A stretch of DNA of 64,000 nt. It comes from Aequorivita todarodis (GTDB lineage Bacteria; Bacteroidota; Bacteroidia; Flavobacteriales; Flavobacteriaceae). Of this stretch, positions 1-64,000 are shown piece after piece. The stretch is from the NCBI RefSeq assembly GCF_028561335.1, contig NZ_JAQQTG010000007.1, forward strand, positions 62,001-126,000. Reading direction: 5' to 3'. The translations under genes were made by a program, and so were the position numbers. The first letter of the stretch is position 1. The number at the start of each line of letters is the position of its first letter. The notes under the pieces were generated by a model. That model had not been told where the DNA came from. It saw only the letters and a list, made by a program, of their open reading frames with translations, and ran no database searches.

Positions 1-120
1 GAGAAATACGGACAAAAGAAATATATTAAAGTTTTTTGAAAATATTTTTTTAAAATATCAATCAAGAAACGCGATAAAAAATCTTTAAAATTGAAGAGGA
101 CAACCCCTTAAATACGTAGT

Positions 121-1107
121 ATGCACATTTTAATAGTAGATTGGTCGGGCCCAATTCCCGCGCTAAAATACGGCGGGACGGAACGCGTTATTTGGGGGCT
201 AGGCAAATGTCTCCACGAACTTGGCCACAAAGTTACTTTTTTGGTGCCCGATGGCTTTACGGGCGATTTTGCCGAAAGTATCCCGCTGGACCAAACCAAG
301 GATCTAAATGACCAAATTCCCGAAGATGTGGACGTGGTCCATCTCAACTATCCTCCCCATCAACCCATCCATAAGCCTTATATTATAACGATGCACGGCA
401 ATCCATGGCCAGACGAGCACATAGACCCTAACACCGTTTTTATTTCAAGAAACCAAGCGGAGCGCCATAATTCTGATGTGTTTGTACACAACGGTTTGTA
501 TTGGGACGACTATGGCACTCCCAATTTAGACAAGCCCCGCACCTATTTTCATTTCTTGGGAAAGGCTTCCCGAAGGGTGAAAAACGTATTCGGCGCCGCA
601 AAAATCGTTTTAAAAGCCAAAGGAAAGCTGATGGTTATGGGCGGGGAACGATGGAACTCCAGAAATTTCACACGGGGGTTCAAGTATATTTTCAATCCAA
701 ATATTACCTTTTTGGGAATGCTGGACGATGCCGAAAAAATGAAGGTTATGGAAAAATCGAAAGCGTTGGTCTTTCCGGTGGAATGGCACGAGCCCTTTGG
801 TTTGGTAATTATTGAAAGCCTTTATGCGGGTTGCGCCGTGTTTTGCACCACAAACGGTTCGCTGCCTGAACTTTTAAGTCCCGAAGTTGGCATGGCCTCC
901 AATGATTCCGATGCATTGGCGGAAGCCCTGCGCAATTTCAAATATGACCCGCAACGCTGTAATAGCTATGCAAAGGAACATTTCAATGCAAAAAAAATGA
1001 CTTTGGAATATTTAAAATTGTATAAAAAAGTAGCCAATGGCGAGAATTTGCACGCTGAAAATCCGCTTTACATACCAGAAAAGAACCAAGTAACCCCTTT
1101 GCTATGA
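121..1107 (+). CDS. Glycosyltransferase, GT4-like (GT-B fold)
   Basis: A 328-residue protein predicted to transfer a sugar from an activated donor onto a glycan or lipid acceptor; the substrate cannot be read from the sequence. The N-terminus has a Rossmann-type strand followed by GGTE (residues 18-21), the usual phosphate-binding entry of GT4 enzymes. The C-terminal half has EPFGLVIIES with the paired glutamates E224 and E232 (E-x7-E), typical of retaining GT-B enzymes. It is a little shorter than common GT4 proteins (350-400). The ATG is preceded by an AT-rich leader with no gene. Its stop overlaps the start of the next gene (ATGATGA), so the two are probably co-transcribed. Confidence 0.85.
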   Translation: MHILIVDWSGPIPALKYGGTERVIWGLGKCLHELGHKVTFLVPDGFTGDFAESIPLDQTKDLNDQIPEDVDVVHLNYPPHQPIHKPYIITMHGNPWPDEHIDPNTVFISRNQAERHNSDVFVHNGLYWDDYGTPNLDKPRTYFHFLGKASRRVKNVFGAAKIVLKAKGKLMVMGGERWNSRNFTRGFKYIFNPNITFLGMLDDAEKMKVMEKSKALVFPVEWHEPFGLVIIESLYAGCAVFCTTNGSLPELLSPEVGMASNDSDALAEALRNFKYDPQRCNSYAKEHFNAKKMTLEYLKLYKKVANGENLHAENPLYIPEKNQVTPLL

Positions 1108-1667
1108 TGAAAGAAGAAATTGAAAATGCACTGCTCGTTCTAAAAAAAGGCGGCCTCATCCTCTACCCTACGGACACGGTTTGGGGAATAGGCTGTGATG
1201 CCACCAACCCAGATGCCGTTGATAAAGTTTTTCAACTGAAAAAAAGAAGCGACGAAAAATCGCTGATCTGCTTGGTGAGCGATTTTAAAATGCTGAACGA
1301 ATACGTTGAAAATGTACCGGAAGTGGCGTATGATATTTTAAAATACGCAAGAAAACCCACGACCATCATTTACGATGACCCCATCCGGGTAGCAGAAAAT
1401 ATCATTGCCGCAGACAATTCACTGGCCATTCGCGTAACCAAGGACGAGTTCTGCAAAAAACTGATACAGCGGTTCCGCAGGCCATTGGTTTCCACATCCG
1501 CAAATATTTCGGGGGAAAAAACCCCGCAAAGCTATGCCGAAATAGACCCTTTAATTTTGGAGGGCGTGGACTATGTTGTAAATTTGCACCACGAAAAAAA
1601 ATCAGGAAAACCTTCGGCGATTATTAAGTTGAAGAATGATGGAAGCGTGAAGGTGATCCGGAAGTAA
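1104..1667 (+). CDS. tsaC: L-threonylcarbamoyladenylate synthase, short Sua5/YrdC form
   Basis: A 187-residue YrdC-domain protein. The family makes threonylcarbamoyl-AMP from threonine, bicarbonate and ATP for the t6A modification of ANN-decoding tRNAs. Visible motifs are PTDTVWGIGCDA near residues 21-32, a KKRSDEKSL basic loop and STSANISGEKTP around residues 131-142. It lacks the C-terminal Sua5 domain, so it is the short TsaC/YrdC form. Two in-frame ATGs (1104 and 1107) are possible. The first overlaps the glycosyltransferase stop, implying translational coupling. Confidence 0.92.
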   Translation: MMKEEIENALLVLKKGGLILYPTDTVWGIGCDATNPDAVDKVFQLKKRSDEKSLICLVSDFKMLNEYVENVPEVAYDILKYARKPTTIIYDDPIRVAENIIAADNSLAIRVTKDEFCKKLIQRFRRPLVSTSANISGEKTPQSYAEIDPLILEGVDYVVNLHHEKKSGKPSAIIKLKNDGSVKVIRK

Positions 1668-1809
1668 CTTTTGCCACGAATACACGAATGATTTTGTAGT
1701 ATGTGAAATTTAGAATGTGCACTAATGTTCAAGGATTATTTTATAAACGGTGGGGATAAACGTGGAAATATTAATAGACACGAATTTTCTGTAGTAAAAT
1801 TCAATAATT

Positions 1810-2184
1810 GTGGAAAACATAATTTATAAAGAAGAAAGTTATGCTATCGTAGGATGTTTGTTTGATGTGCATAATAATCTTGGAGGTGGATTTTCTGAAA
1901 TAGTTTATAAAGATGCGCTAGAATATGAATTCAAATTAAAAAGCATTGATTACGAAAGAGAAAAAATGTATTCCGTGAAATATAAGGATATAATTTTACC
2001 TCATAAATTCTATGCTGATTTTGTGGTTATGGACAAAATTATTCTCGAAATAAAGTCTATTAAAACCTTCCACGAGAAACATTTTGCCCAATGCATAAAT
2101 TATTTAAAAGTATCGGAATGTAAACTTGCATTTTTGATCAATTTTCATCGAGATTTTTTAAACTATAAAAGAATCGTACTCTAA
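1810..2184 (+). CDS. GxxExxY family protein (PD-(D/E)xK-like)
   Basis: A 124-residue protein starting at GTG. It carries the family signature G27-F-S-E30-I-V-Y33 and a nuclease-like core, D70 followed by E80-I-K82, which matches a PD-(D/E)xK arrangement. The family is common in Bacteroidota and other environmental bacteria and its function is not established; a nuclease-related role is inferred from the core only. It stands alone between intergenic stretches rich in 'cacgaat' type repeats and is more AT-rich than its neighbours, consistent with an accessory gene. Confidence 0.85.
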   Translation: MENIIYKEESYAIVGCLFDVHNNLGGGFSEIVYKDALEYEFKLKSIDYEREKMYSVKYKDIILPHKFYADFVVMDKIILEIKSIKTFHEKHFAQCINYLKVSECKLAFLINFHRDFLNYKRIVL

Positions 2185-2330
2185 ATTTTAATAGTATTAA
2201 AAGCCACTTCAATAATTAATATTAATGCACTTTATTCAAAATAAACCTATCGAAAGTTAAAAGAGTCATACATCTATTCTGGCGTAAAAGAGATTCGTGA
2301 AAATTCTCCCTTAAGCGGAAAATTAAAAAA

Positions 2331-2419
2331 TATTTGTGTATTTGTGGCGAAAATTATATTAGAGACAATTATTCTTTAACTACACAATTAAAGGTATTCG
2401 TGTATTTGTGGCGAAAATT
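2331..2419 (+). repeat. Two copies of the TTTGTGGCGAAAATTA repeat
   Basis: The string TTTGTGGCGAAAATTA occurs at about 2340-2355 and again at 2405-2420, both preceded by TGTAT or similar. Related TTCGTGGC and GCCACGAATACACGAAT strings recur near 1672, 3930, 4060, 11873, 12868 and 12960. The second copy ends at the ATG of the next gene and supplies an apparent upstream GTG start. Confidence 0.8.
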
Positions 2420-3868: not shown

Positions 3869-4062
3869 GCTCGCGATTTATCGCGTGCAAATTGATGTAA
3901 AAAATAATTCGTGAATTCGTAGTCAAAAATTCGCCACGAATACACGAATAAAAAATATTTAACCACAAAGAACACAAAGGTTTAATACAGAGATCACAAA
4001 GAAAACTCTGTGAACTTTGTGGTTAAAAAAACATAAGAATTAAATAAAAATTTAGAGAATTC
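3869..4062. repeat. Intergenic palindromes (CGCGAT/ATCGCG; CCACAAAG/CTTTGTGG)
   Basis: Holds a short hairpin at about 3871-3887 (TCGCGAT TT ATCGCG), GCCACGAATACACGAAT-type repeats near 3931, and a long inverted repeat with AACCACAAAG near 3961 pairing with CTTTGTGGTT near 4015. Similar CCACAAAG inverted repeats are at 22413-22510 and a GC-shifted version at 23720-23787. No gene is seen. Confidence 0.75.
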
Positions 4063-5082
4063 GTGGCAAAGAAAGACAACAAAAAAGTAATCTACTGGCT
4101 CTTAACGGGATGTTTCCTGATTTTTGTAATGGTCGTTGTAGGCGGAATAACACGCCTTACGCATTCGGGGCTTTCAATATCGAGCTATAAACTTATTTCG
4201 GGCACGCTGCCGCCAATGAACGAAGCACAATGGATCGCGGAGTTTGACCATTACAAACAATTTCCCGAATACCAAAAACTGAACAACCACTTCAGTTTAG
4301 AGGATTTTAAGGATATTTATTTCTGGGAATGGCTCCATCGCCTGCTGGGAAGGCTTTTAGGGGTGGTTTTTATTATTCCTTTCTTATATTTTCTTCTGAA
4401 AAAACAACTTACCAAGCCAACTATCAAAAAAGCAATTGTCCTAATGTGCTTGGGAGCGTTCCAAGGATTTTTGGGCTGGTATATGGTGAAAAGTGGTTTG
4501 GTGGACATTCCCGATGTGAGCCACTATCGGCTTGCCATGCACTTAACAACCGCCTTTATAACTTTTGCATACACCTTTTGGGTCGCGTTGGATTTGTGGT
4601 ATCCCGTTAAAAAGGAAGTTGACGGCCACATCCGGAATATCATCCGGTTTGGAATGGCAATCCTCTTAATCCAAATTATTTGGGGCGCATTCGTGGCGGG
4701 TCTCGACGCGGGCCTAATCCACAACCACTGGCCATTGATGAACGAAGGCAAATGGATGCACGAAACCGTATATACAGAACAGGTTCCATTGTGGAGAAAT
4801 TTCGTTGAAGGCAGAAGCGGAGTGCAGTTTTTCCATCGCTCTATGGCCTATGTGGTTGTTGCGATCATCTTTTTCATTTGGTACAGAACCAGAAAATTGC
4901 AGCTCACCCTTCCGCAAAAAAACGGAATAAACCTGTTATTGGTTTTGGTTTTGGTGCAATTCATATTGGGAATTTTCACCCTTATCCTGCACGTGCCCGT
5001 GGTTTTGGGCGTTCTGCATCAAGTAACGGCATTTTTTCTATTGGCAACGATGACTTTTGTGCTGCATCGTTTTTCAAAATAA
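4063..5082 (+). CDS. ctaA: Heme A synthase, COX15/CtaA family
   Basis: A 339-residue inner-membrane protein with about eight predicted transmembrane segments that oxidises heme O to heme A for cytochrome oxidases. Landmarks are GGITRLTHSGLS near residue 26, WEWLHRLLGR (histidine of the first bundle), GLDAGLIHNHWPLM, HRSMAYVVV and VLHQVTAFF, which contain the conserved heme-related histidines. The only plausible start is a GTG inside a copy of the TTCGTGGC intergenic repeat. No other cytochrome oxidase assembly genes are adjacent. Confidence 0.92.
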   Translation: MAKKDNKKVIYWLLTGCFLIFVMVVVGGITRLTHSGLSISSYKLISGTLPPMNEAQWIAEFDHYKQFPEYQKLNNHFSLEDFKDIYFWEWLHRLLGRLLGVVFIIPFLYFLLKKQLTKPTIKKAIVLMCLGAFQGFLGWYMVKSGLVDIPDVSHYRLAMHLTTAFITFAYTFWVALDLWYPVKKEVDGHIRNIIRFGMAILLIQIIWGAFVAGLDAGLIHNHWPLMNEGKWMHETVYTEQVPLWRNFVEGRSGVQFFHRSMAYVVVAIIFFIWYRTRKLQLTLPQKNGINLLLVLVLVQFILGIFTLILHVPVVLGVLHQVTAFFLLATMTFVLHRFSK

Positions 5083-5131
5083 ATTCCGAAGCAAAACTGA
5101 AAACTGCCACTAAAAACTGCATACTTTTCAA

Positions 5132-5139
5132 TAACTTTG
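5132..5139 (+). promoter_or_regulatory. Putative -7 promoter box TAACTTTG
   Basis: Matches the Bacteroidota -7 consensus TAnnTTTG, 21 bp before the ATG at 5161. No good -33 TTG is seen at the usual spacing. Its position rules out an in-frame TTG at 5137 as the start codon of the next gene. Confidence 0.5.
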
Positions 5140-5160
5140 CAGTCCAAAAATTTTAGACCC

Positions 5161-5676: not shown

Positions 5677-5748
5677 GTTCAGTGATCAGTCTCGGTCGCA
5701 GTCGCAGTCGCAGTTTTCAGTTTCGAAAAAGTAGAGGAAATTACCCAA

Positions 5749-5811
5749 CGCTTAACCCTTAACCCTTAACGCTTAACGCTTAACCCCTAACCCTTAACGC
5801 TTAACTCCTAA
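5749..5811 (+). repeat. Nine tandem heptamers (CNCTTAA/CCCTTAA type)
   Basis: Nine consecutive 7-bp units in perfect phase, alternating mostly between CGCTTAA and CCCTTAA with CCCCTAA and CTCCTAA variants, ending 5 bp before the ATG at 5817. A separate hexamer run (GTCGCA, three copies) is at about 5695-5713. Confidence 0.93.
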
Positions 5812-5816
5812 CCCCA

Positions 5817-6875
5817 ATGATCAACCTCTTCAATACCCACATTGCATCGCTTTCCATACACAGAGTGGGCAATAAAAGCCGAAATGAAGCCATTTTTCTT
5901 TCCGCGGAACCGTATAGAATGGATGATGAGATTACGCCATTGCTAAAAGAATTTTTTCTGAAACCGTTTCGCGATAAGGAAGAAAACTATTTCCATTTTT
6001 CGCACGAGGCCGATCTGGAATTCCACGAGCTCTTCAACAGCGCTTCCAAGATTTTTGACAACCAACAGAACATACACGAAGAAAGCCGAAAAATAACGAC
6101 TTATCTATATAACCAGTCTGAACATCCACATATTAAAAGTGGAGAGGTTTATGTGGCCTATCTCGAAAATGTGCAGTTGGACAATGTGAAGATGGACGCC
6201 ATCGGAATTTTCAAAAGTGAATTGAAACAGGATTTCCTTCAGTTTGCCGAGGAAGGAAACCAATTGGAAGCCTTGCTACAACATGGGGTAAATCTCAACA
6301 AATTGGATAAGGGCTGTATCATTTTCAATTCCCAAAAGGAAGAAGGCTATAAAATTCTTTCGGTGGACAGCAACCGTTACGATGCGCGCTACTGGCTGGA
6401 AAGCTTTTTAGGGGTTGAAGCACTTGCGGACGATAATTTCTACACAAAAAAGTACTTAAAGTTCTGTCAGGATTTTGCCAAGGACGTGGTTTTGCCAGCC
6501 GAGGACAAAAAGCAGGAAGTGCTATTTATGAACCGCGCCGTGAACCATTTTGCCAAAAACGACAATTTTGAGGAAACCGCCTTTATGAACGAGGTGATAG
6601 ACAATCCGGATTTATTGCCGGAATTCCGTCATTACAAAAGTGAAAAAGCACCCAAATACAGTATTGAGGATTTAACCACCTTTCCAATTGCGAATACTGC
6701 CGTAACTGCCGCCCGTAAAAAAATAAAAAACGTAATAAACCTGGATACCAACATCCAGATAAAACTGGATTTCATCAACCCTGAAAGTGCCGAAAAGTTT
6801 GTGGAAAAAGGCTGGGACGAGGAGAAGCAGATGTATTATTATTTGGTGTATTTTAACAAGGAACAGAAATCGTAG
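5817..6875 (+). CDS. Nucleoid-associated protein, NdpA/YejK-like
   Basis: A 352-residue protein matching the 37-kDa nucleoid-associated (NdpA/YejK) family. These DNA-binding proteins are widely conserved but poorly understood. Recognisable parts are the N-terminal LSIHRVGNKSRNE start, FLKPF, and the central segment with YVAYLENVQLDNVKMDAIG and DRYDARYW-like DSNRYDARYWLESFLG. Length is normal. Its start codon is almost directly preceded by the heptamer array, so any promoter must lie upstream of the array or inside it. Confidence 0.85.
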   Translation: MINLFNTHIASLSIHRVGNKSRNEAIFLSAEPYRMDDEITPLLKEFFLKPFRDKEENYFHFSHEADLEFHELFNSASKIFDNQQNIHEESRKITTYLYNQSEHPHIKSGEVYVAYLENVQLDNVKMDAIGIFKSELKQDFLQFAEEGNQLEALLQHGVNLNKLDKGCIIFNSQKEEGYKILSVDSNRYDARYWLESFLGVEALADDNFYTKKYLKFCQDFAKDVVLPAEDKKQEVLFMNRAVNHFAKNDNFEETAFMNEVIDNPDLLPEFRHYKSEKAPKYSIEDLTTFPIANTAVTAARKKIKNVINLDTNIQIKLDFINPESAEKFVEKGWDEEKQMYYYLVYFNKEQKS

Positions 6876-6899
6876 AGACGCACGGCCGTGCGTCTTTTT
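6876..6899 (+). terminator. Perfect 20-bp palindrome with T-run
   Basis: AGACGCACGG/CCGTGCGTCT directly abuts the stop codon at 6875 and is followed by TTTTT, a textbook intrinsic terminator shape. A second copy of the palindrome lies at 6985-7006, next to the end of the convergent recQ. Confidence 0.8.
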
Positions 6900-6908
6900 G
6901 GGTCAAAT

Positions 6909-7006
6909 ACGGCCGTAGATTGTTTCGGCGAGACGCACGGCTGTACATTGTTTCGGCGAGACGCACGACCATAAATTGTTTCGACGAGACGCACGGCCGT
7001 GCGTCT
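6909..7006. repeat. Three 28-bp tandem repeats ending in a palindrome
   Basis: Three units (6909-6936, 6937-6964, 6965-6992), each of the form ACGGCCGT..ATTGTTTCGGCGAGACGC with a few changes, then a final ACGGCCGTGCGTCTC that completes a 22-bp perfect palindrome. They fill the space between convergent genes. Confidence 0.9.
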
Positions 7007-7016
7007 CTACGTATGG

Positions 7017-9209
7017 TTAATTCCCAACTTCGCTGATGAATTTGATTCGGTACAGCCGCAGTTCCTCTTCGTCATAATCGCCGTCAAATTCGTCTAAGGC
7101 CTCTTCGATCTTATCCGTTTTTGCCTCCAAGAAATATTCGTGGATTTCTTCCTGCTGGTCTTCATCCAACACCTCATCAATCCAATAATCTATATTCAGC
7201 TTGGTGCCGCTATAAACAATGGCTTCCATTTCCTTAATAAATTCTGGCATCTCAAGGCCTTTGGCGTTGGCAATATCGGGCAGGGCAAGTTTGCGATCCA
7301 CGTTTTGAATAATGTATAATTTAAGGGAGCTATTGCTGCCGGTGGATTTCACAACAAAATCTTCCGGACGGATTATGTCGTTTTCCTCAACGTAGTCCTG
7401 GATGATCTTTAGGAAAGGTTTGCCATATTTTTTCGCCTTGCCCTCTCCCACTCCGTGGACGTTGGAGAGCTCATCCATTGTTATAGGATATTTAAGTGCC
7501 ATATCTTCCAACGAGGGCTCCTGAAAAATCACAAATGGGGGAAGGTCTAAATTGTGTGCTACTTTTTTCAACTCTGCTTTCAAAAGTTTGAAAAGATTTT
7601 CGTCAACAACTTCGCCACCTTTATTGGAGGCTACAATCACGTCGTCATTGGCGTCCTTAAACGAATGGTCCTCGGTCATCATAAAGGAGGTGGGCGATTT
7701 TATAAATTTCTTTCCCGCATCTGTTAAATGAATAACGCCATAGGTTTCAATATCCTTTTTCAAGTAGCCTGCCACCAATAACTGGCGCAACAGAGCCATC
7801 CAATAGGCCGCATCGTGCTTGGCGCCAGAGCCGAAATACGCTTGGGCATCCGTTCGGTGCGATTTTATAAGGGCATTTACCTTGCCGACCAAAACATTTA
7901 CAATTTCCTTACTTTTATATTGTTCATTGGTTTTAAAAACTACTTCCAAAAGCTGTTTTGCATCGTCTTTTGCCTCGTGTTTCTTTTTGGGGTGGCGCAT
8001 ATTGTCGTCCATCATGCCGCCTTCGCCGGTCTCGTTGTCAAATTCCTCCCCAAAATAATGGAGGATGAATTTTCTTCGGGATATTGAAGTTTCGGCAAAA
8101 GCGACCACTTCCTGCAAGAGGGCATGGCCTATTTCCTGTTCGGCAACAGGCTTGCCGCTCATAAATTTTTCGAGTTTCTCAATGTCTTTGTAACTATAAA
8201 AAGCAAGGCAGTGCCCTTCGCCCCCATCACGACCGGCGCGCCCGGTTTCTTGATAGTAGCTTTCAATACTTTTAGGGATATCGTTATGGATCACAAAACG
8301 AACGTCTGGTTTGTCAATTCCCATTCCGAAGGCTATGGTAGCCACGACCACATCTACGTCTTCCATCAAGAACATGTCTTGGTGCTTTACGCGGGTCTTG
8401 CCGTCGAGACCGGCGTGATAGGGAACGGCCTTTATACCGTTTACCTGCAGTGCCTGTGCAAGCTCTTCTACCCTTTTTCTGCTTAAGCAATAAATAATGC
8501 CGCTTTTGCCTTCATTCTGTTTTACAAAGCGAATGATGTCTGAATCCACATTTTTTGTTTTCGGCCTTATTTCATAATAAAGGTTTGGGCGATTGAAAGA
8601 TGCCTTAAAGGTGGTTGCATTCTGCATATTGAGGTTTTTCAGAATATCCTCCTGCACTTTTGGGGTGGCGGTGGCGGTAAGCCCAATTATTGGAATATCG
8701 TTTCCAATTCGTTGAATAATACTTTTAAGGTTTCGGTATTCCGGCCTAAAATCGTGGCCCCACTCACTGATGCAGTGGGCCTCATCTATGGCCATGAAAG
8801 AGATTTTCTGGGTTTGCAGAAAATTTACGTATTCTTCCTTGGTGAGCGATTCGGGCGCTACGTAGAGCAATTTTGTTACGCCGCTCACAATGTCGCTCTT
8901 TACTTTTTTTACTTCGGTTTTGTTGAGGGAGGAGTTTAGTACGTGGGCAATCCCTTCTTCCGAAGAAAGGGCACGCAGGGCATCCACTTGGTTTTTCATA
9001 AGCGCAATGAGTGGCGAAACCACTATGGCCGTTCCTTCCTGCATGAGCACCGGAAGTTGGTAACAAAGCGACTTTCCTCCGCCCGTGGGCATAACCACAA
9101 AGGTATTGTTACCGTTAAGGATGCTTTTTACGACTTCCTCCTGCAGACCCTTAAAACGGGTAAATCCAAAAAATTTCTTTAGTGCTGCATAAATGTCAAT
9201 CTCTGCCAC
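7017..9209 (-). CDS. recQ: ATP-dependent DNA helicase RecQ
   Basis: A 730-residue 3'-5' DNA helicase used in recombination and fork repair. It shows the RecQ motif 0/I region with PTGGGKSLCYQLP, the DEAH box in AIDEAHCISEWGHDFRPEY, LTATATPKVQ, and QETGRAGRDG (motif VI). An RQC/winged-helix region follows, then an HRDC domain near residues 530-600 and a C-terminal helical domain. The zinc-binding cysteines usual after LHYFGEE are absent: residues about 373-402 read EGGMMDDNM where CGxCDxC is expected. Divergent from the kdsD-like gene, with about 200 bp between. Confidence 0.95.
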   Translation of the reverse strand: MAEIDIYAALKKFFGFTRFKGLQEEVVKSILNGNNTFVVMPTGGGKSLCYQLPVLMQEGTAIVVSPLIALMKNQVDALRALSSEEGIAHVLNSSLNKTEVKKVKSDIVSGVTKLLYVAPESLTKEEYVNFLQTQKISFMAIDEAHCISEWGHDFRPEYRNLKSIIQRIGNDIPIIGLTATATPKVQEDILKNLNMQNATTFKASFNRPNLYYEIRPKTKNVDSDIIRFVKQNEGKSGIIYCLSRKRVEELAQALQVNGIKAVPYHAGLDGKTRVKHQDMFLMEDVDVVVATIAFGMGIDKPDVRFVIHNDIPKSIESYYQETGRAGRDGGEGHCLAFYSYKDIEKLEKFMSGKPVAEQEIGHALLQEVVAFAETSISRRKFILHYFGEEFDNETGEGGMMDDNMRHPKKKHEAKDDAKQLLEVVFKTNEQYKSKEIVNVLVGKVNALIKSHRTDAQAYFGSGAKHDAAYWMALLRQLLVAGYLKKDIETYGVIHLTDAGKKFIKSPTSFMMTEDHSFKDANDDVIVASNKGGEVVDENLFKLLKAELKKVAHNLDLPPFVIFQEPSLEDMALKYPITMDELSNVHGVGEGKAKKYGKPFLKIIQDYVEENDIIRPEDFVVKSTGSNSSLKLYIIQNVDRKLALPDIANAKGLEMPEFIKEMEAIVYSGTKLNIDYWIDEVLDEDQQEEIHEYFLEAKTDKIEEALDEFDGDYDEEELRLYRIKFISEVGN

Positions 9210-9254
9210 GCTTCTTCGTTTTTAATGGGCAATTCAGTTTTAGCCAACAATACA

Positions 9255-9284
9255 TTGTTTTACAGATTAACAATTGTAATTTTG
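9255..9284 (+). promoter_or_regulatory. Promoter TTG-N19-TAATTTTG
   Basis: A full match to the Bacteroidota promoter: TTG at 9255-9257, 19-bp spacer, TAATTTTG at 9277-9284. Transcription would start near 9291, giving a leader of about 120 nt before the kdsD-like gene. Confidence 0.65.
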
Positions 9285-9412
9285 CAACCGTATTGAGCTA
9301 ACTGCATCTTAAAAGAAAGGTATCTATATTTAAGATTACTGAATTTAATTAAATAGCATTCTAAATATACTAATTTCTGATACAGTTACAAACATTCAAA
9401 AGCATTAAAATT

Positions 9413-10378
9413 TTGAACAAGCAAGAAAGAATTATTTCCGTAGCCAAAAATACCATAGAAACTGAGAGTAAAGCCATTGCAAATTTGGCCCATTTGGTGG
9501 ACCGGGAGTTTGCAGGCGCAGTTGATTATATTTATCATTCCAAGGGGAGGGTTATTGTTACCGGCATTGGCAAAAGCGCAAATATTGCTACCAAAATTGT
9601 AGCTACGTTAAACTCAACGGGAACTCCCGCGATCTTTATGCATGCCGCAGATGCCATCCACGGTGATTTGGGGACCATTCAAGAAAACGATACGGTTATC
9701 TGTATTTCAAAAAGCGGGAACACCCCCGAAATAAAGGTGCTTGTGCCCCTCATAAAAGCCATTGACAACAAATTGATTGCCATTACCGGAAACCGTGAAT
9801 CTTTTTTGGGCCAACAAGCAGATTTTGTGCTCAACGCTTATGTGGAAAAAGAAGCCTGTCCCAATAATCTGGCGCCAACCACCAGCACCACCGCCCAATT
9901 GGTAATTGGCGACGCCTTGGCCATGTGCCTTTTGGACCTTCGCGGGTTTTCCAGCAAGGATTTTGCAAAATTCCATCCCGGTGGTTCTTTGGGGAAAAAA
10001 TTATATTTGCGGGTCAGCAATCTTACCTCGTTAAATGAAAAGCCACAGGTAAGCCCCGATACCGACGTAAAAAAAGTAATTGTTGAAATTTCCGAAAAAA
10101 TGCTGGGCGTAACGGCTGTGGTTGAAAACGATGAAATTGTGGGTATAATAACAGACGGCGACTTGCGACGCATGTTGACGAGAACCGATAACTTTGCAGG
10201 ACTCACCGCAAAGGATATTATGACCCAAAACCCAAAAAAAATAGCCAACAACGCCATGGCCGTTGAAGCAATGGAAATGATGGACAGCTACGGCATCACC
10301 CAGATTCTTGCTGAAGATAAAGGCAAGTACAGTGGGGTGGTCCATATTCATAACCTTACCAAAGAGGGCATTATTTGA
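9413..10378 (+). CDS. kdsD: D-arabinose-5-phosphate isomerase, KpsF/GutQ family
   Basis: A 321-residue enzyme interconverting ribulose 5-phosphate and arabinose 5-phosphate, the first committed step toward Kdo for lipopolysaccharide. A SIS domain fills residues about 35-170 (VTGIGKSANIATKIVATLNSTG, DLGTIQENDTVICISKSGNTPE), followed by two CBS domains (about 205-255 and 270-320). It starts at TTG; no upstream in-frame ATG exists. Its TGA overlaps the ATG of tatC, so the two form an operon. Confidence 0.92.
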   Translation: MNKQERIISVAKNTIETESKAIANLAHLVDREFAGAVDYIYHSKGRVIVTGIGKSANIATKIVATLNSTGTPAIFMHAADAIHGDLGTIQENDTVICISKSGNTPEIKVLVPLIKAIDNKLIAITGNRESFLGQQADFVLNAYVEKEACPNNLAPTTSTTAQLVIGDALAMCLLDLRGFSSKDFAKFHPGGSLGKKLYLRVSNLTSLNEKPQVSPDTDVKKVIVEISEKMLGVTAVVENDEIVGIITDGDLRRMLTRTDNFAGLTAKDIMTQNPKKIANNAMAVEAMEMMDSYGITQILAEDKGKYSGVVHIHNLTKEGII

Positions 10379-11217: not shown

Positions 11218-11370
11218 TGGTGCTGGGTGCGGGATGACGGTTGCTGGGTGTTTTGGAATAAAATTATGTATCAAGTAACAGGATTTAAGGGAAACGGGAC
11301 GGTTTTTCAAATTTATCCAAAACCTGTCTTGAGTCTTGATTCCCTTTAATCTTGGTTCAAATAAATAAAT

Positions 11371-13733: not shown

Positions 13734-13777
13734 GGTCTTTATCGAGCAATTTGGATTCTATTTATTATTCAGGGACA

Positions 13778-15058: not shown

Positions 15059-15062
15059 TGGA

Positions 15063-15090
15063 GGGTGCTGGGTGCTGGGTGCTGGATGAC
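15063..15090 (+). repeat. Heptamers GGGTGCT (x3) + variant
   Basis: Three exact GGGTGCT units and a GGATGAC variant immediately after the stop of the PorV-like gene. Similar GGGTGCT/GGGTGAT units appear at about 11205-11255. Confidence 0.85.
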
Positions 15091-15172: not shown

Positions 15173-15248
15173 CGAATCAACGAATCAAAATACAAAAACT
15201 CATACCCCATACCACAAACCTTGAATCTTGAATCTTGAATCTTGAATC
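15173..15248 (+). repeat. Octamer CGAATCAA (x3) and heptamer TTGAATC (x4) arrays
   Basis: CGAATCAA repeats from about 15165 to 15188, and four exact TTGAATC units occupy 15221-15248, ending 21 bp before the GTG start of the next gene. Confidence 0.85.
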
Positions 15249-15269
15249 TGAACCTGAAACCCAAAAAAC

Positions 15270-17102: not shown

Positions 17103-17151
17103 GAACACCGAACACCGAACACTGATTACTGATTACTGAATACTGAATCAC
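17103..17151 (-). repeat. Seven degenerate heptamers (GAACACC to GAATCAC)
   Basis: Units GAACACC, GAACACC, GAACACT, GATTACT, GATTACT, GAATACT and GAATCAC run in strict 7-bp phase and end in the last codons of the following minus-strand gene. The sequence drifts while the period is kept. Confidence 0.9.
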
Positions 17152-18539: not shown

Positions 18540-18562
18540 TCGGGGGGTTGTTTTGTTTGTTA

Positions 18563-18668
18563 TTTGGGGTTTGGGGTTTGTTGTTTATTGTTTCTGGTTT
18601 CTGGTTTCTTGTTTGGGGTTTGGGTTACTGGGTTATTGAGTTATGGGTTAAGGGTTTGGGGTTAAGTG
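18563..18668 (+). repeat. 15-unit degenerate heptamer array (T/G-rich)
   Basis: Fifteen consecutive units such as TTTGGGG, TTTGTTG, TTTATTG, TTTCTGG, TACTGGG, TTATGGG and TTAAGGG keep a 7-bp period over 106 bp, with a single 8-bp unit (TTATTGAG). It lies just upstream of the start of the sugar transferase gene. Confidence 0.92.
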
Positions 18669-18701: not shown

Positions 18702-18757
18702 CTACTCACTACCCACTACCACCTACCACCTACCACCTACAAACTACCAACTACCCT
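18702..18757 (-). repeat. 8-unit heptamer array (CTACCAC type)
   Basis: Eight units from CTACTCA to CTACCCT, three of them exactly CTACCAC, in perfect 7-bp phase. It is A/C-rich, opposite in polarity to the T/G-rich array 34 bp away. Confidence 0.92.
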
Positions 18758-23681: not shown

Positions 23682-23953
23682 GTTTTGGGATTAATTGATA
23701 GCGTATGTTAGTTTTACCGCAAAGGCGCAGAGGGCGCAAAGAAAAATAATGAGTAAGTATCTCTGCGTACTTCGCGCCTTTGCGGTTATATTTTATTGCA
23801 CATAGGTTTTATATTAAATATACTTTCGTTTGACCCCCGACCTACTTCGGCATGCTCAGCACATCGCCTAAAGGGGAGAAGTAAAGTTCATTTTCACAAC
23901 AAACGGACAACTGACACCCGATAACCGAAAACAGATAACCGAAAACAAAAAAT
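23682..23953. repeat. Repeat-rich spacer incl. six heptamers at 23906-23947
   Basis: Contains the inverted repeat TACCGCAAAGGCGC / GCGCCTTTGCGGTTA (23720-23787), a TACTTCGGCATGCTCAGCAC element (23841-23860; a diverged copy is near 33041) and six heptamers GACAACT, GACACCC, GATAACC, GAAAACA, GATAACC, GAAAACA at 23906-23947. Confidence 0.8.
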
Positions 23954-41002: not shown

Positions 41003-41369
41003 GGGAAAAGACTGAAGAAAATTCTATTGGAATTGTTCTTATTTTGGAATTGTTGCTGGGTGGGGGATTTGGGATTTGTGATTTGTTAATCGGGGATTTG
41101 TTAATCTGGGATTTGGAAACAGGACTAAAGGGAATCAAGAAACAAGACTGAAAGAAAACTCTCTTCCCTTTGGGGCCAGGGGTTATTGGAGTTTAGGTAT
41201 TTGCTAATTGTTAATTCGTAACCTAGTGAGAAAGCAAGAACCAAAACTGACCCACATTTTCATTTCCCCTTTAGGGGTCAGGGAGTTATTGGGATTTGGG
41301 ATTTTAACTTGAAGGGCGCCCAAGCGCTTGCTTCGACTGCATATGGCGGAGCAATAACGAATGGGTTTT
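41003..41369. repeat. Repeat-rich spacer with heptamers at 41064-41114
   Basis: Units GGGATTT, GGGATTT, GTGATTT, GTTAATC, GGGGATTT, GTTAATC and TGGGATTT (mostly 7 bp, two of 8) at 41064-41114, plus a CCCTTTGGGGCCAGGGG palindrome-like run near 41166 and CCCCTTTAGGGGTCAGGGAG near 41268. No credible gene in 40976-41369. Confidence 0.75.
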
Positions 41370-45261: not shown

Positions 45262-45292
45262 GACTTTGGGGTTTTGGGGTTCTTATTTTAGG

Positions 45293-45362
45293 TTTCAGGT
45301 TGTAGGTTCAAGGTTTGAGGTATGAGGTCATATTTCGTATTTCAGTTTTGGAATTTGGGACC
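45293..45362 (+). repeat. Ten degenerate heptamers (TTTCAGG type)
   Basis: TTTCAGG, TTGTAGG, TTCAAGG, TTTGAGG, TATGAGG and five further units hold a strict 7-bp phase just upstream of the fused synthase gene. The CCTGCCTG/CAGGCAGG hairpin follows at once. Confidence 0.88.
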
Positions 45363-45389
45363 TGCCTGCCAGAGGCACGACAGGCAGGT
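45361..45389. repeat. CCTGCCTG..CAGGCAGG hairpin element, copy 1
   Basis: CCTGCCTG pairs with CAGGCAGG around a CCAGAGGCACGA loop, flanked by TTTGGAAT on both sides. Other copies are at 47136-47163 and 62715-62740; all lie in intergenic DNA with heptamers alongside. Confidence 0.85.
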
Positions 45390-46991: not shown

Positions 46992-47093
46992 GGATTTTTA
47001 TAGGTGTGGAATTTTGAATCTATCCCCCTTTAGGGGGCAGGGGGTCCGCTCGAATTTTCAATGGTATCAAGTTTTCATAGTTCCGATTTGGTA

Positions 47094-47237
47094 TTTCTAC
47101 TTTCGTATTTCGTATTTGTTTTTTGGAATTTGAAACCTGCCTGCCAGAGGCACGACAGGCAGGTTTGGAATTTCAGGTTTCAGGTTTCAGGTTTCTTAAA
47201 TCTTGAACCTTGAATCTTGAATCTTGAATCTTGAATC
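47094..47237 (+). repeat. Heptamer arrays around hairpin copy 2
   Basis: TTTCTAC, TTTCGTA, TTTCGTA, TTTGTTT, TTTGGAA, TTTGAAA (47094-47135), the CCTGCCTG/CAGGCAGG hairpin (47136-47163), then eleven more units at 47161-47237 including three AGGTTTC and four TTGAATC, each set in 7-bp phase. Fills most of the 46992-47371 spacer, which also starts with CCCCCTTTAGGGGGCAGGGG near 47022; no gene is seen there. Confidence 0.9.
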
Positions 47238-47371
47238 TTAGAAAAAAGCCAAAATTTTAAAAATCCTTTACGGGAAATTAGAAATCCTTTGGGGTAAACT
47301 TTTTTTTACCCAGTTTTTATAGTTTTAGTAACGCAATATAATTGTTGTTATAAAAAGGAATAGAAAACGAT

Positions 47372-57026: not shown

Positions 57027-57469
57027 AATTTTGCATGGTTAAGGTTATACAATAATTTTAACGTTCTGGCCTGCTCCTCGGGTCCTGCAAAACTTGGGAG
57101 CGGGTCTTTTCATTGCGAGTGAAACGAAGCAATCTTTCGAATAGCTAGGCGTCCTCCACATTGCGAGCGAAGCAAGCTACACGCCAATCTCTACTTCTCT
57201 ACTTCTCTAGTCTCAAGTCTCAAATCTCAAGTCTCAAGTCTCTTTTCAAATTTCTAATTCAGTAAGTAAAAAAAATCCCTTCAACCCTCCCGAAACAGTA
57301 TCGGGAGGAGGTTCTAACTGGGAGAGTTTGGAACGGCCCAAGTTGAAGGGACAAGGTCATTGCGAGCATAGCGCAGCAATCCCGTAATAAAAACTAAATC
57401 ATCCCATAAAAATCATAATGTTGGGTTGCGAGAACTAACGCAAAAGGAAGAAGCCGATAGCTTTGAAGA
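57027..57469. repeat. Repeat-rich spacer: CATTGCGAG repeats, heptamers 57211-57259
   Basis: Contains CATTGCGAGYG-type repeats at about 57111, 57159 and 57359 (a related GCATTGAGAAGATTGCTTCGC string is at 63808), octamer TCTACTTC, heptamers TCTCAAG/TCTCAAA with TCTCTTT, TCAAATT and TCTAATT in phase at 57211-57259, and a CCCGAAACAGTATCGGGAGG hairpin near 57288-57307. No gene. Confidence 0.75.
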
Positions 57470-58169: not shown

Positions 58170-58203
58170 CCCTATGCTGGTGTGCGATTGCATCGCGTAC
58201 CCA
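58170..58203 (+). repeat. REP-like palindrome, copy 1
   Basis: CTGGTGTGCGATTGCATCGCGTA... with the CGAT-TGC-ATCG hairpin core. Copies 2-5 are at about 58931, 60106, 62823 and 63630, all in the same orientation. Confidence 0.85.
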
Positions 58204-58350
58204 GACTATTTGGCTTTTATAAAGCTTGCTCCACATTAATACCCCACTGGCGCGTTATAGCCTGTACTAAACGAAGTAAAAGTGTACAATGTATATTTAT
58301 TGTTTCAACCGTTATTGGCACCGTCTCATTTTAAAACCAGTAAAAAACTT

Positions 58351-58928: not shown

Positions 58929-58962
58929 GGCTGGTGCGCGATTGCATCGCGTTCCCAGACTT
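58929..58962 (+). repeat. REP-like palindrome, copy 2
   Basis: GCTGGTGCGCGATTGCATCG followed by CGTTCCCAGAC; perfect CGCGAT-TGC-ATCGCG stem. Confidence 0.88.
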
Positions 58963-59029
58963 ACTACCAACCGCAAGAACTTCTGGATTTTCCGTTTGAT
59001 ATTAAAAAGGACGATATTCGAGAATAGCA
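58963..59029 (+). pseudogene. Possible C-terminal gene remnant
   Basis: Directly after REP-like copy 2, one frame reads a short protein-like tail ending ELLDFPFDIKKDDIRE then a stop. It has no start codon and is cut off exactly at the repeat boundary. Family unknown; it may equally be chance. Confidence 0.3.
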
Positions 59030-60034: not shown

Positions 60035-60040
60035 ATGTGG

Positions 60041-60103: not shown

Positions 60104-60136
60104 ATGCTGGTGCGCGATTGCATTGCGTTCCCACAC
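60104..60136 (+). repeat. REP-like palindrome, copy 3
   Basis: GGTGCGCGATTGCATTGCGT, one mismatch in the stem (ATTGCG for ATCGCG), in the space between the Abi promoter and the XRE remnant. Confidence 0.85.
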
Positions 60137-60149
60137 GTACTATCAAAGT

Positions 60150-60316
60150 TTCAACTTGGATTGAAATTGGAAAATTTGCCAATCAGATGGGACGTATTGA
60201 GAGAGCGGAAAGTAATCCTAACTGTTGCAACCTTAGTTGCCTTAGCCGAATTTTTTAAGATCGATATTAAGGAATTTTTTAATCCAAAAACTTTTGAATT
60301 AGAATTTACGGGATGA
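60150..60316 (+). pseudogene. Frameshifted remnant of an XRE-type regulator
   Basis: One frame reads FANQMGRIERAESNPN (about 60172-60220), the HTH recognition part; the next frame continues TVATLVALAEFFKIDIKEFFN to a stop at 60316, the usual C-terminal part of such regulators. Together they reconstruct a normal XRE domain broken by a +/-1 shift near 60221. The N-terminal half is missing upstream, where REP-like copy 3 lies. Confidence 0.75.
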
Positions 60317-60743
60317 TAAAAATCAGTATTTCAATAGGAATTTCCCCTGAAATAGTGTACAACACCGTATTGTAATCCCCCTTTCCCTGTCGCAGATATT
60401 TTCCATCATAGGTGTAGAGCACTGTTTCATAATTGCCTTTTCCCTGTCTTATATATTTCCCGTCCCAGGTATATAGCACTGGGTTATAATCTCCTTTGCC
60501 CTGTCGCAGATATTTTCCGTCCCAAGTTGCCAAAACCGTATTGTAATCTCCTTTGCCCTGCCGGATGTACTTATCGGTCAAGGTGTATAATACCGTTTCA
60601 TAATTCCCTTTGCCCTGCCTTAGGTATTTGCCATCCCAAGTAGCCAAAACCGTATTATAATCGCCTTTTCCCTCCCTGATGTAGCTTTGTGCTTTTGCGA
60701 ATAGCGAAAAAATGAGGAAGAGGGATATTATAACATATTTCAT
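60306..60743 (-). CDS. Exported protein of six 19-residue repeats
   Basis: A 145-residue protein with a signal peptide (VIISLFLIFSLFAKAQ, cleaved near 18) and then six tandem 19-residue units of the form DGKYLRQGKGDYNTVLYTW, alternating GDYNTVLATW and GNYETVLYT variants. The pattern of Tyr, Gly and Thr at fixed places predicts a beta-hairpin solenoid or small propeller. It is presumably periplasmic or surface located. I do not recognise a named family. It overlaps the XRE remnant end to end by 11 bp. Confidence 0.8.
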   Translation of the reverse strand: MKYVIISLFLIFSLFAKAQSYIREGKGDYNTVLATWDGKYLRQGKGNYETVLYTLTDKYIRQGKGDYNTVLATWDGKYLRQGKGDYNPVLYTWDGKYIRQGKGNYETVLYTYDGKYLRQGKGDYNTVLYTISGEIPIEILIFIIP

Positions 60744-62697: not shown

Positions 62698-62798
62698 TTT
62701 TGGAATTTGGGACCAGCCTGCCAGGGGCACGACAGGCAGGTTTGGAATTTGAAATTTCAGCTTTCAAGTTACAGTTTTCTTGAATTATGAATCTTGAA
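62698..62798. repeat. CCTGCC..GGCAGG hairpin copy 3 with heptamers
   Basis: CAGCCTGCC pairs imperfectly with GGCAGG around GGGGCACGACA at 62714-62740, followed by 7-bp-phased TTTGGAA, TTTGAAA, TTTCAGC, TTTCAAG and related units to about 62798. Together with REP-like copy 4 it fills the 62631-63008 spacer; no gene is seen there. Confidence 0.8.
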
Positions 62799-62820
62799 TC
62801 TCAAAATCCATTCCCCTAGC

Positions 62821-62852
62821 TAGGCTGGTGCGCGATTGCATCGCGTTCCCAT
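62821..62852 (+). repeat. REP-like palindrome, copy 4
   Basis: GCTGGTGCGCGATTGCATCG then CGTTCCCATAC, perfect stem. Confidence 0.88.
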
Positions 62853-63008
62853 ACCGTTCAAATAAAAAATTTGAAAAATGAATATGGCTTACACCGAGAT
62901 TTCCTTTTTAGATAGTCCTAAATCCCACAATTTCTTATATTTAGCGTGTCTTTCGTTATATTCATAAGGTTTGATCCATTCGTTTTGATTATTAATTCTA
63001 TAAGAAAA

Positions 63009-63599
63009 ATGACCCCCAAGCGAGAGCAAAGAATCAGGAACAAAATAAAGAAAATAAAAGCTGCCTTGGCGGCCGACAAAAAGCATTGGGGCGGCTATCA
63101 TCACGATGGACAAGGCCTTAGATACTTACCCCCCAGCCTTTACCTGCAATTAAATGACTTTACCGGTGGGCTTCGGTATCTGAATTGGTTCAACAAAAAC
63201 TTTCCCGATGATATCGGTTATCCCGACTTTTTGTTTGAGTGTACGGTCATTCTATATAAAACAGGCCGACTAAAAGAGGCAGCAAGGAACGCATTTAAGA
63301 CTTTTACGGGAAATACGTACCTTTTCGATAAGTTTTTCGGCAGACCCTCTGTAGCAATCGACAAATGGGAAGGTTCAAATTGGGAACGTGCCTCACACAC
63401 CGCCCATTTTCAATATAACCACCAGCAAGAAAATTTATCCGACTTTGGAATATGGTTGGAAGATTTGATCCAAACGGAACAATTTAGCGCTTTGGCCGCT
63501 AAATATATAGATATTCATAAAAGACTTAAAAACGAAGACAATAGGGAAACCAGAGGTTATTTAACAGAACAAGCACGTCAGTTGGAAAACAAATTATAA
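63009..63599 (+). CDS. Hypothetical protein
   Basis: About 196 residues from the ATG at 63009 (TPKREQRIRNKIKKIKAALA, a basic helical start). A longer frame to 62946 adds an improbable hydrophobic lead and is not preferred. The middle has GGYHHDGQGLRYLPPSLYLQL and FLFECTVILYKTGRLKEAARNAF, which reads like a tetratricopeptide-type helical pair. No catalytic motif. It lies between REP-like copies 4 and 5. Confidence 0.65.
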   Translation: MTPKREQRIRNKIKKIKAALAADKKHWGGYHHDGQGLRYLPPSLYLQLNDFTGGLRYLNWFNKNFPDDIGYPDFLFECTVILYKTGRLKEAARNAFKTFTGNTYLFDKFFGRPSVAIDKWEGSNWERASHTAHFQYNHQQENLSDFGIWLEDLIQTEQFSALAAKYIDIHKRLKNEDNRETRGYLTEQARQLENKL

Positions 63600-63627
63600 A
63601 GGCCAAGAAATATATCTTTACTTCTCT

Positions 63628-63659
63628 GCCGGTGCGCGATTGCATCGCGTTTCCCGACA
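63628..63659 (+). repeat. REP-like palindrome, copy 5
   Basis: CCGGTGCGCGATTGCATCGC then GTTTCCCGAC, perfect CGCGAT/ATCGCG stem. Confidence 0.88.
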
Positions 63660-63749
63660 TTGCCAATCTCAAGAAGTATTTGACCTTTTAAGGTTCTTTT
63701 ATATTGTCGGTCTAAATGTTTAGTGATATTGGGAAGGAGCGACAATGCT

Positions 63750-64000
63750 AATCCACAAATTCCAAATAACAAATAACAAATCCCGAATAACAAAAAATAT
63801 TTTGCGCATTGAGAAGATTGCTTCGCTGCGCTCCCAATGACGGGGCTTTGCCGTGTTTTCTTGGACGATGGTGTGTGCAATTATATGCAGGAATATGAAC
63901 TAATGTGCCTTTGTATGCAAAATTGTGCAAGAAAGGGTAGTCTGTGCTTTGAGGTTTTGGATAAGGGATTTCGGATTGTAGGTTTGGGGTATTGTTTAAC
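63750..64000. repeat. Terminal spacer with two heptamer arrays
   Basis: Six A/C-rich heptamers (AATCCAC, AAATTCC, AAATAAC twice, AAATCCC, GAATAAC) at 63750-63791, a GATTGCTTCGCTGCGCTC repeat near 63815 and seven T/G-rich heptamers (TTTGAGG, TTTTGGA, TAAGGGA, TTTCGGA, TTGTAGG, TTTGGGG, TATTGTT) at 63948-63996. No gene in 63600-64000. Confidence 0.82.

What the first reader, a model, noticed from the sequence alone, without database searches (positions are those of the whole stretch)
1..64000. Heptamer arrays recur at a dozen or more intergenic sites with different unit sequences
Besides 18563-18668, 7-bp-phased arrays are at 5749-5811, 15063-15090, 15221-15248, 17103-17151, 18702-18757, 23906-23947, 41064-41114, 45293-45362, 47094-47237, 57211-57259, 62741-62798, 63750-63791 and 63948-63996. 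Unit families (TTGAATC, TTTSAGG, CCCTTAA, CTACCAC, GAACACC) differ yet period 7 is shared. None lies inside a confident gene. This looks like a genome-wide, possibly undescribed, repeat architecture.
Basis: seen in the sequence. Interest (0 to 1): 0.75.

Follow-up and report, generated by a model that had tools for sequence, protein, structure and literature searches.

The report
Seven-base tandem repeats between genes
The spaces between genes in this bacterium (an Aequorivita) hold many short tandem repeats seven bases long; repeats of this kind are already known from many bacteria, but here it can be seen that small seven-base duplications turn up in every kind of spacer while long arrays are kept mainly just behind gene ends.

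Summary
13 of the 14 named sites are period-7 stretches (p<=0.005 against shuffles); 63948-63996 is not (p=0.20). In 1.26 Mb sampled from the same genome, and in stretches of 22 other genomes of the genus, intergenic period 7 far exceeds periods 6, 8 and 9. "Undescribed" does not hold. A survey of 7,006 prokaryotic genomes found tandem heptamers the most abundant repeats in intergenic regions of many species, with no clue to function (PMC6344855). The same layout was described in Xanthomonas and Nostoc (PMC4692102), and heptamer arrays in an Aequorivita species (PMC4679880). What I add: arrays start right behind stop codons and are rare in divergent spacers of this genome. One orthologous spacer carries arrays of different units in 11 of 20 species. 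Two-copy 7-bp duplications are equally dense in all spacer types, but long arrays are not. Best explanation: a bias towards 7-nt duplication, followed by selection that removes growing arrays from promoters and leaders. Why 7 remains open. A 7-bp excess among between-species indels vanished when only independent pairs were counted. Three named sites contain or adjoin a dispersed REP-like palindrome.

The parts
5747..5814 (+). heptamer array CTTAACC/CTTAACG, ends about 4 bp before the start codon at 5817
   Evidence: same unit with fewer copies in L010 and L013 (read by eye)
15063..15090 (+). heptamer array GGGTGCT, begins 4 bp after the stop codon of the gene ending at 15058
   Evidence: same unit in L013
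15165..15188 (+). octamer array CGAATCAA x3 in the same spacer
15201..15249 (+). heptamer array TTGAATC, 20 bp before the start codon at 15270
17103..17151 (-). heptamer array (sense AGTATTC), reaches into the stop codon of the sugar transferase gene 17148-18539
18563..18668 (-). heptamer array (sense CCACAAA family), begins 23 bp upstream of the start of gene 17148-18539
18702..18757 (-). heptamer array (sense TTGGTAG), 19 bp after the stop of gene 18775-19797
23906..23947 (-). heptamer/14-mer array (sense GGTTATC/TGTTTTC), 6 bp after the stop of gene 23954-25282
   Evidence: below the array threshold
41064..41114 (.). short, partly 15-bp array GGGATTT, upstream of the gene 40040-40975(-)
   Evidence: below the array threshold
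45286..45362 (.). degenerate TTTSAGG array beside a REP-like palindrome
   Evidence: below the array threshold
45361..45388 (+). 28-bp REP-like palindrome CCTGCCTGCC-N10-CAGGCAGG
47086..47240 (.). composite: TTTCGTA array, 28-bp palindrome at 47136-47163, TTTCAGG array, AATCTTG array
57188..57259 (.). octamer array TCTCTACT running into heptamer array TCTCAAG, in a divergent spacer
62713..62801 (.). REP-like palindrome (62713-62740) followed by a degenerate TTTSAAG/AATCTTG array
   Evidence: array below the array threshold
63750..63794 (.). AAATAAC/AAATCCC array downstream of gene 62946-63599

Best explanation
These are intergenic heptameric simple sequence repeats. Step 1 (inferred from the spectrum of two-copy duplications): in this genus replication or repair makes tandem duplications with a preferred step of 7 nt between genes, from whatever sequence is there. 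This is why unit sequences are unrelated while the period is shared. Step 2 (inferred from unit similarity falling with distance and from a whole-unit length difference between two sister species): once copies exist, slippage grows, shrinks and homogenises the array. Step 3 (the pattern is shown, the selection is inferred): long arrays survive where a growing insert does least harm, directly behind stop codons and in tandem or convergent spacers. They are removed from divergent, promoter-bearing spacers and from genes, where 7 bp shifts the frame. Those next to start codons are almost free of G, as leaders lean to be in general. No function of the arrays themselves is required. Why the step is 7 is not explained; [quoted passage not shown]
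For: Period 7 excess replicated in separate data sets. Two-copy exact 7-bp duplications outside arrays: 69 against 37.0 expected in the own sample and 53 against 32.7 in other genus stretches; 5, 6 and 9 bp show no excess. 59 loci of other Flavobacteriaceae show none at 7 bp (27 against 32.5) and also have fewer arrays per spacer base. Short 7-bp duplications are equally dense in tandem, convergent and divergent own spacers (excess 0.220, 0.238, 0.228 per kb) but long arrays are not (0.450, 0.223, 0.092 per kb). Unit identity falls with distance: 0.906 at one unit to 0.831 at six. L010 and L013 differ by 7 bp in the array orthologous to 5747. Arrays within 10 bp of a stop: 39 of 102 (16.4 expected), 9 of 29 (1.6), 30 of 61 (11.9), 6 of 17 (1.8). 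Divergent spacers hold 12 of 132 arrays but 25.2% of spacer bp, p=4.6e-6.
Against: Between-species indels do not independently support the 7-nt step: 24 close pairs gave 24 of 7 bp against 11 of 6 and 9 of 8, 19 against 9 and 7 after removing double counts, with only 5 of the 19 in or near arrays; in 7 pairs sharing no species it was 6 against 4, 5 and 6 at 6, 8 and 9 bp, that is no peak. Octamers do not follow the birth-everywhere pattern: short 8-bp duplications are in excess in own tandem spacers (0.206 per kb) but not in divergent ones (-0.099). A few 13-16-bp two-copy duplications are also in excess (own 10 in all against about 1.2). Two-copy duplications could partly be decayed arrays. 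Tolerance alone does not obviously predict arrays starting within a few bases of the stop. In the other genomes the divergent depletion is absent per spacer (5 of 150 against 18 of 524 tandem, p=1.0). One unit, CTTGAAT, recurs at 7 places in this genome but at 0-2 in each of 27 others, which unit-blind birth does not explain. No within-species polymorphism could be tested.
Confidence: 0.55

Rival explanations
1. The arrays are functional 3' elements: their position behind stop codons, period and base bias are selected, while the unit sequence is free. They might keep inter-cistronic RNA unstructured or bind an RNA-binding or termination factor.
For: Stop-codon abutment replicated in four sets. 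The spacer 5677-5816 has an array in this genome and in 11 of 20 relatives, with different units, against 0 of 16 in spacer 5083-5160 (Fisher p=6e-4). Stop-proximal arrays have G over C 38:20 against 373:523 in array-free spacers, p=5e-4. Array spacers are less folded than array-free ones, p=0.006, 40 against a random sample of 120.
Against: Other orthologous spacers carry arrays in a minority of species (5 of 19, 4 of 14, 3 of 15, 2 of 16, 2 of 10). The G/T-rich rule seen at two spacers did not replicate in fresh own data (17 against 18). In own arrays more than 20 bp from the stop the G-over-C bias is reversed (3:8). No dominant unit and no systematic pairing of arrays was found.
Confidence: 0.22
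2. The units place stop codons in all three frames behind the true stop (7 mod 3 = 1), a fail-safe against readthrough.
For: Arrays abut stop codons, and periods 7 and 8 both cycle through all frames.
Against: Tested: stop trinucleotides are no commoner on the sense strand than on the antisense strand of stop-proximal arrays (own, offset 0-20: 16 against 16 of 28; overlapping the stop: 12 against 15 of 19).
Confidence: 0.03
3. The arrays are spread by a mobile element: the dispersed 28-bp palindrome (REP-like, possibly moved by a Y1/RAYT transposase) carries flanking heptamers.
For: Three window sites are composites of palindrome plus TTTGGAA/TTTCAGG/AATCTTG heptamers. One of the Y1 transposase hits (C7:5320-5565) lies about 300 bp from a related palindrome (C7:5005).
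Against: The palindrome is far rarer than the arrays in the sampled DNA (15 pattern rows, against 93 own arrays of 56 unit families). Palindromes also occur where no heptamers are evident by eye (L194, L200).
Confidence: 0.1
4. Phase-variation switches.
For: Array length differs by whole units between two sister species, and 7 bp shifts a reading frame.
Against: Arrays lie mainly behind stops and are scarce in divergent spacers. The gene functions next to the arrays were not surveyed.
Confidence: 0.04

Closest known systems
Intergenic tandem heptamer repeats of prokaryotes (SPADE survey, PMC6344855, passages seen; long SSRs of Mrazek 2007, not seen, as cited in PMC4679880 and PMC4692102)
   Same: Period 7 dominant, intergenic, no known function
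   Different: Here the duplication spectrum, spacer type, stop abutment and orthologous spacers were examined in one genus
GGGAATC / GGGGA(C/T)T heptamer repeats of Xanthomonas and Nostoc (PMC4692102, sections 10, 11, 16 seen)
   Same: Mostly intergenic, close to ORF ends, G-rich strand reading away from the ORF, under-represented between divergent ORFs, majority between the same genes in two species but with variable length and sequence
   Different: There one G-quadruplex-forming unit type; here 56 unit families among 93 arrays, only 15 of 93 with a GGG or CCC run in the unit
TAACTGA direct repeats of Beggiatoaceae, Cyanobacteria and some Bacteroidetes (PMC4679880, abstract and sections 3, 8, 10, 23 seen)
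   Same: Heptamer, intergenic; Aequorivita sublithincola is one of its hosts, with other heptamers in the same spacers
   Different: Single favoured unit, mostly just upstream of start codons in the Guaymas Beggiatoaceae genome; here many units, most strongly placed just after stops; TAACTGA x3 is absent from this genome and present in 8 of 28 genus genomes
Cyanobacterial STRR heptanucleotide repeats (recalled; here only a search term and a mention in PMC4692102)
   Same: Heptanucleotide, tandem
   Different: Not compared by sequence

Membership tests
Intergenic heptameric simple sequence repeats of prokaryotes | Unit length 7 in excess over neighbouring lengths | tested here: met
Intergenic heptameric simple sequence repeats of prokaryotes | Predominantly intergenic | tested here: met
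   period-7 arrays intergenic/coding: own 25/1 and other Aequorivita loci 48/7, 24/5, own fresh 39/6 and G007 11/0
Intergenic heptameric simple sequence repeats of prokaryotes | Copy number changes by slippage within a species | not testable with these tools
   one genome per species is held; between species, one whole-unit difference at the 5747 array and no 7-bp indel peak in independent pairs
Xanthomonas/Nostoc G-quadruplex heptamers | GGG or GGGG run in each unit, one unit type | tested here: not met
   GGG or CCC in 15 of 93 own array units; 56 unit families, commonest CTTGAAT/ATTCAAG
Xanthomonas/Nostoc G-quadruplex heptamers | G-rich strand reads outward from the ORF; divergent spacers under-represented | tested here: met
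   within 20 bp of an edge: stop-side G>C 38:20 against background 373:523; start-side C>G on the sense strand 21:3 against 749:354; divergent 12 of 132 arrays; not met for own arrays farther than 20 bp from stops (3:8) or per spacer in other genomes
TAACTGA repeats | Unit TAACTGA | tested here: not met
   0 matches of three exact units in this genome
REP/RAYT elements | Dispersed short palindrome with a Y1 transposase gene near copies | tested here: inconclusive
   palindrome dispersed; 4 Y1_Tnp matches, 3 over cut-off, one beside a related palindrome; applies to three composite sites only
Phase-variation loci | Repeat number switches expression of the adjacent gene | not testable with these tools
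   no strain or expression data

The most novel reading that the evidence does not exclude
The period itself is functional: a stop-proximal element whose 7-nt step, position and strand bias are kept across the genus while its letters turn over freely, read by some factor or process with a 7-nt step and not by a sequence-specific protein. The same would hold for the Xanthomonas and Nostoc heptamers.
Probability: 0.12. Interest if true: 0.8.

Novelty: new member of a known kind. Interest (0 to 1): 0.4.

Why it matters
Tandem heptamers are reported as the most abundant repeats in intergenic regions of many prokaryotes, and why the number is 7 is an open question in print (PMC6344855, PMC4692102). 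Aequorivita gives a tractable case: the genus has a 7-bp duplication excess and many arrays, and other Flavobacteriaceae sampled here have less of both. Birth (even over spacer types) and survival (behind stops) can be told apart, so the polymerase-step idea and a functional idea make different, testable predictions.

Tried and rejected
Cyanobacterial origin: rejected, no Photo_RC hit in the genome; TatC is 76-93% identical to that of named Aequorivita. Stop codons in all frames: not supported. Stop-proximal units always G/T-rich: suggested by two orthologous spacers and not replicated in fresh own data, 17 against 18; only the milder G-over-C bias near stops stands. Paired arrays forming hairpins: of 63 same-spacer pairs 14 are within 2 mismatches of inverted and 22 of direct, but 28 of the 63 come from one spacer of L013; array spacers are less, not more, folded. 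Descent of units at orthologous spacers: within-site distance 3.04 against 3.69 between sites (0 of 5,000 permutations as low), but after-stop units of two different spacers are as alike (2.73) as within a spacer (2.66), so base bias of the zone can explain it; 33 heptamer units were used, octamers left out. Depletion of the promoter word TANNTTTG in array spacers: 7 of 47 against 74 of 266, p=0.07, not significant; the motif is recalled, not taken from a call. Units with both G and C: 64 of 132 against 72.9 (sd 4.6) expected, weak. Density per genome: too few bases to rank species. A viral-contig scan with a glycosyltransferase gave no relative. Rfam: 0 matches in the window. Gene ends throughout come from a simple ORF finder of my own (longest ORFs of at least 90 or 100 aa, ATG preferred), not from curated annotation; stops are exact for real genes, starts are approximate.
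Full report
Organism. The window is contig 49, 62001-126000, of a 3.33-Mb, 51-contig genome. TatC from the window is 76-93% identical to TatC of named Aequorivita, and the tool places the genome in a genus of which 28 genomes, this one included, are held. This is a flavobacterium, not a cyanobacterium.

Observation. 13 of the 14 named sites are significant period-7 stretches and 63948-63996 is not. At one array threshold the window plus 20 stretches of the same genome (54,641 intergenic bp) give 25 period-7, 6 period-8, 2 period-13 and 2 period-15 arrays and none at periods 4-6, 9-12 or 14; one round of shuffled spacers gives none. Intergenic self-match by distance peaks at 7 (0.313, against 0.293 at 6 and 8), with further peaks at 14, 21 and 28; coding DNA does not show it. 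Fresh data agree: 39 period-7, 11 period-8 and at most 2 of any other period in 40 more own stretches; 11 period-7, 4 period-8 and 2 period-11 in 20 stretches of G007. In 40 stretches of 22 other genus genomes there were 24 period-7, 6 period-14, 2 period-8, 2 period-11 and 1 each at 6, 10 and 15. 59 loci of other Flavobacteriaceae had 14 period-7 and 3 period-8 arrays in 113 kb of spacer, a lower density.

Anatomy. In the own sample (1.264 Mb) 71 heptamer arrays have a median of 5.7 copies and 22 octamer arrays a median of 4.6. There are 56 unit families among these 93 arrays; the commonest, CTTGAAT/ATTCAAG, has 9. In exact triple form it occurs at 7 places in this genome and 0-2 places in each of 27 other genus genomes. 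Unit identity falls from 0.906 for neighbours to 0.831 six units apart, as local duplication would leave it.

Where they sit. Arrays lie within 10 bp of a stop codon in 39 of 102 cases (16.4 expected if placed at random in the same spacers), and in new data 9 of 29 (1.6), 30 of 61 (11.9) and 6 of 17 (1.8). At start codons the excess is small: 19 of 78 (13.8), 2 of 17 (1.0), 12 of 55 (9.2), 3 of 15 (2.0). The first set includes the same region of 21 species, so its cases are not independent. Divergent spacers, 25.2% of spacer bases, hold 12 of 132 arrays (p=4.6e-6). Per spacer the depletion is clear in the own genome (6 of 140 against 64 of 571 tandem, p=0.011) but absent in the other genomes (5 of 150 against 18 of 524, p=1.0). 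Near starts the sense strand of own arrays is almost free of G (0.061 G, 0.269 C), and near stops G exceeds C (0.228 against 0.137). Array-free leaders share the first bias; array-free 3' regions lean the other way. Own arrays farther than 20 bp from the stop also lean the other way (3:8).

Orthologous spacers. Over 18 neighbouring gene pairs around TatC, compared with 21 named relatives (each pair counted only where both genes are still neighbours), the spacer 5677-5816 carries an array in 11 of 20 species as well as in this one. The units differ: TCGGTAG, TAAGTAG, TTCAGTG, AGGCTTT and others after the stop; CATAACC and TTAACAA before the start; only L013 shares this genome's AACGCTT at that threshold. 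Spacer 5083-5160, of similar length, has none in 16 (Fisher p=6e-4). Spacer 18540-18774 has arrays in 4 of 7, 11218-11370 in 5 of 19, 15059-15269 in 4 of 14, 11725-11909 in 3 of 15, 3869-4128 in 2 of 16 and 6876-7016 in 2 of 10. The divergent spacers 9093-9637 and 13734-14074 have none in 21 and 16; two pairs are neighbours in no relative (sequences of two spacers). In L010 and L013 the array at 5747 has the same unit and fewer copies. So sites recur while letters do not; I could not show that units descend from one another, because base bias of the zone can explain their similarity.

Birth against survival. This is the most telling result. Exact two-copy 7-bp duplications outside arrays are in excess (69 against 37.0 expected; other genus stretches 53 against 32.7). 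5-, 6- and 9-bp ones are not; 8-bp ones are slightly so in the own genome (23 against 17.7) and not elsewhere (5 against 12.5); a few at 13-16 bp are (own 10 in all against about 1.2). Other Flavobacteriaceae show no 7-bp excess (27 against 32.5). In the own genome the 7-bp excess is the same in tandem, convergent and divergent spacers (0.220, 0.238, 0.228 per kb), whereas long arrays are about five times denser in tandem than in divergent spacers (0.450 against 0.092). In the other genomes the short-duplication excess is 0.114, 0.304 and 0.104 per kb and the long-array excess 0.176, 0.297 and 0.057. Octamers differ: their short duplications are in excess in own tandem spacers (0.206 per kb) but not in divergent ones (-0.099). 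Between-species gaps were meant as an independent test. Over 24 close pairs, beyond the usual decline from 1 bp (201) they showed a second peak at 7 bp in spacers (24, against 11 at 6 and 9 at 8) and none of 7 bp in coding DNA. After removing double counts it was 19 against 9 and 7, only 5 of the 19 in or near arrays, and in 7 pairs sharing no species there was no peak (6, against 4, 5 and 6 at 6, 8 and 9 bp). That test is therefore inconclusive.

Mechanism. I read the data as a 7-nt duplication bias acting between genes, with selection against growth in promoters, leaders and frames. The bias is shown only as a spectrum of two-copy duplications; that replication slippage causes it, and that selection does the filtering, is inferred. 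A functional role for stop-proximal arrays is not excluded: abutment to within a few bases of the stop is sharper than tolerance alone would suggest.

Known or new. [quoted passage not shown] PMC4692102 (sections 10, 11, 16 and passages seen) describes, for G-rich units in Xanthomonas and Nostoc, the same outward-G layout, scarcity between divergent ORFs, and shared sites with variable sequence; it cites Mrazek 2007 (not seen) for the polymerase idea. PMC4679880 (abstract and sections 3, 8, 10, 23 seen) reports TAACTGA repeats and other heptamer direct repeats in Aequorivita sublithincola; here TAACTGA x3 occurs in 8 of 28 genus genomes and not in this one. Passages only were seen of PMC4060949, PMC9426551 and PMC9723704, which added nothing decisive. 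My literature searches listed no paper whose title or abstract start shows such a separation of birth from survival, or the stop abutment for Bacteroidota; the library lacks most subscription journals. Hence: a new member of a known kind, with an open and now more testable question.

Composite sites. At 45361, 47136 and 62713 a 28-bp palindrome sits among TTTGGAA/TTTCAGG/AATCTTG heptamers. The palindrome family is dispersed through the genome (40 pattern matches on both strands, overlapping and related forms counted apart), and there are Y1 transposase genes (4 matches, 3 over the cut-off). So some of the shared unit families in the window may travel with, or have been built around, a repeated element.

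Noticed in passing
window 58176-58215, 58930-58969, 60106-60145, 62824-62863, 63628-63667: Five same-strand copies of a 40-nt element with the palindromic core GCGATTGCATCGC, 754-2718 bp apart, among an Abi_2 gene, a gene with a sub-threshold McrBC match and a gene with a TerB match and a sub-threshold DnaJ zinc-finger match. The 25-nt form (up to 2 mismatches) occurs only here in this genome; a 22-nt core has 1-4 matches in 8 other genus genomes and two more in this one. Possibly a cassette-like defence cluster.
   Followed up: partly
window 45361-45388, 47136-47163, 62713-62740: REP-like 28-bp palindrome CCTGCCTGCC-N10-CAGGCAGG, exactly four times 7 bp and flanked by direct TTTGGAAT-like repeats on both sides; dispersed in the genome, with Y1 transposase genes present.
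   Followed up: partly
window 16527-17029: 2.7 copies of a 192-bp tandem repeat between gene 15270-16451 and the heptamer array at 17103.
   Followed up: no
window 6870-7012: 28-bp tandem repeats bounded by a perfect 25-bp inverted repeat (6871-6895 / 6987-7011) around ACGGCCGT, between the gene ending at 6875 and the gene 7017-9209(-), RecQ-like by eye.
   Followed up: no
window 60359-60673: 57-bp tandem repeat, 5.5 copies, inside a small minus-strand ORF 60306-60743.
   Followed up: no
own genome, L085, L098, L099 and others: Octamer arrays with related A/T-rich units (AAACTCAT, AACTCAAT, AAAAGTTT) form a second repeat class; unlike heptamers, their short two-copy duplications are in excess in own tandem spacers but not in divergent ones.
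   Followed up: partly
L013:16441-17102 (Aequorivita vladivostokensis): A 955-bp convergent spacer holding eight heptamer arrays, mainly AAACCTG and GATTCAA types.
   Followed up: no
L076:4537-4778 (Aequorivita lipolytica): In the spacer orthologous to 5677-5816, several tandem copies of a longer unit containing the palindrome CCCGATAGCTATCGGG lie between the heptamer array and the start codon.
   Followed up: no
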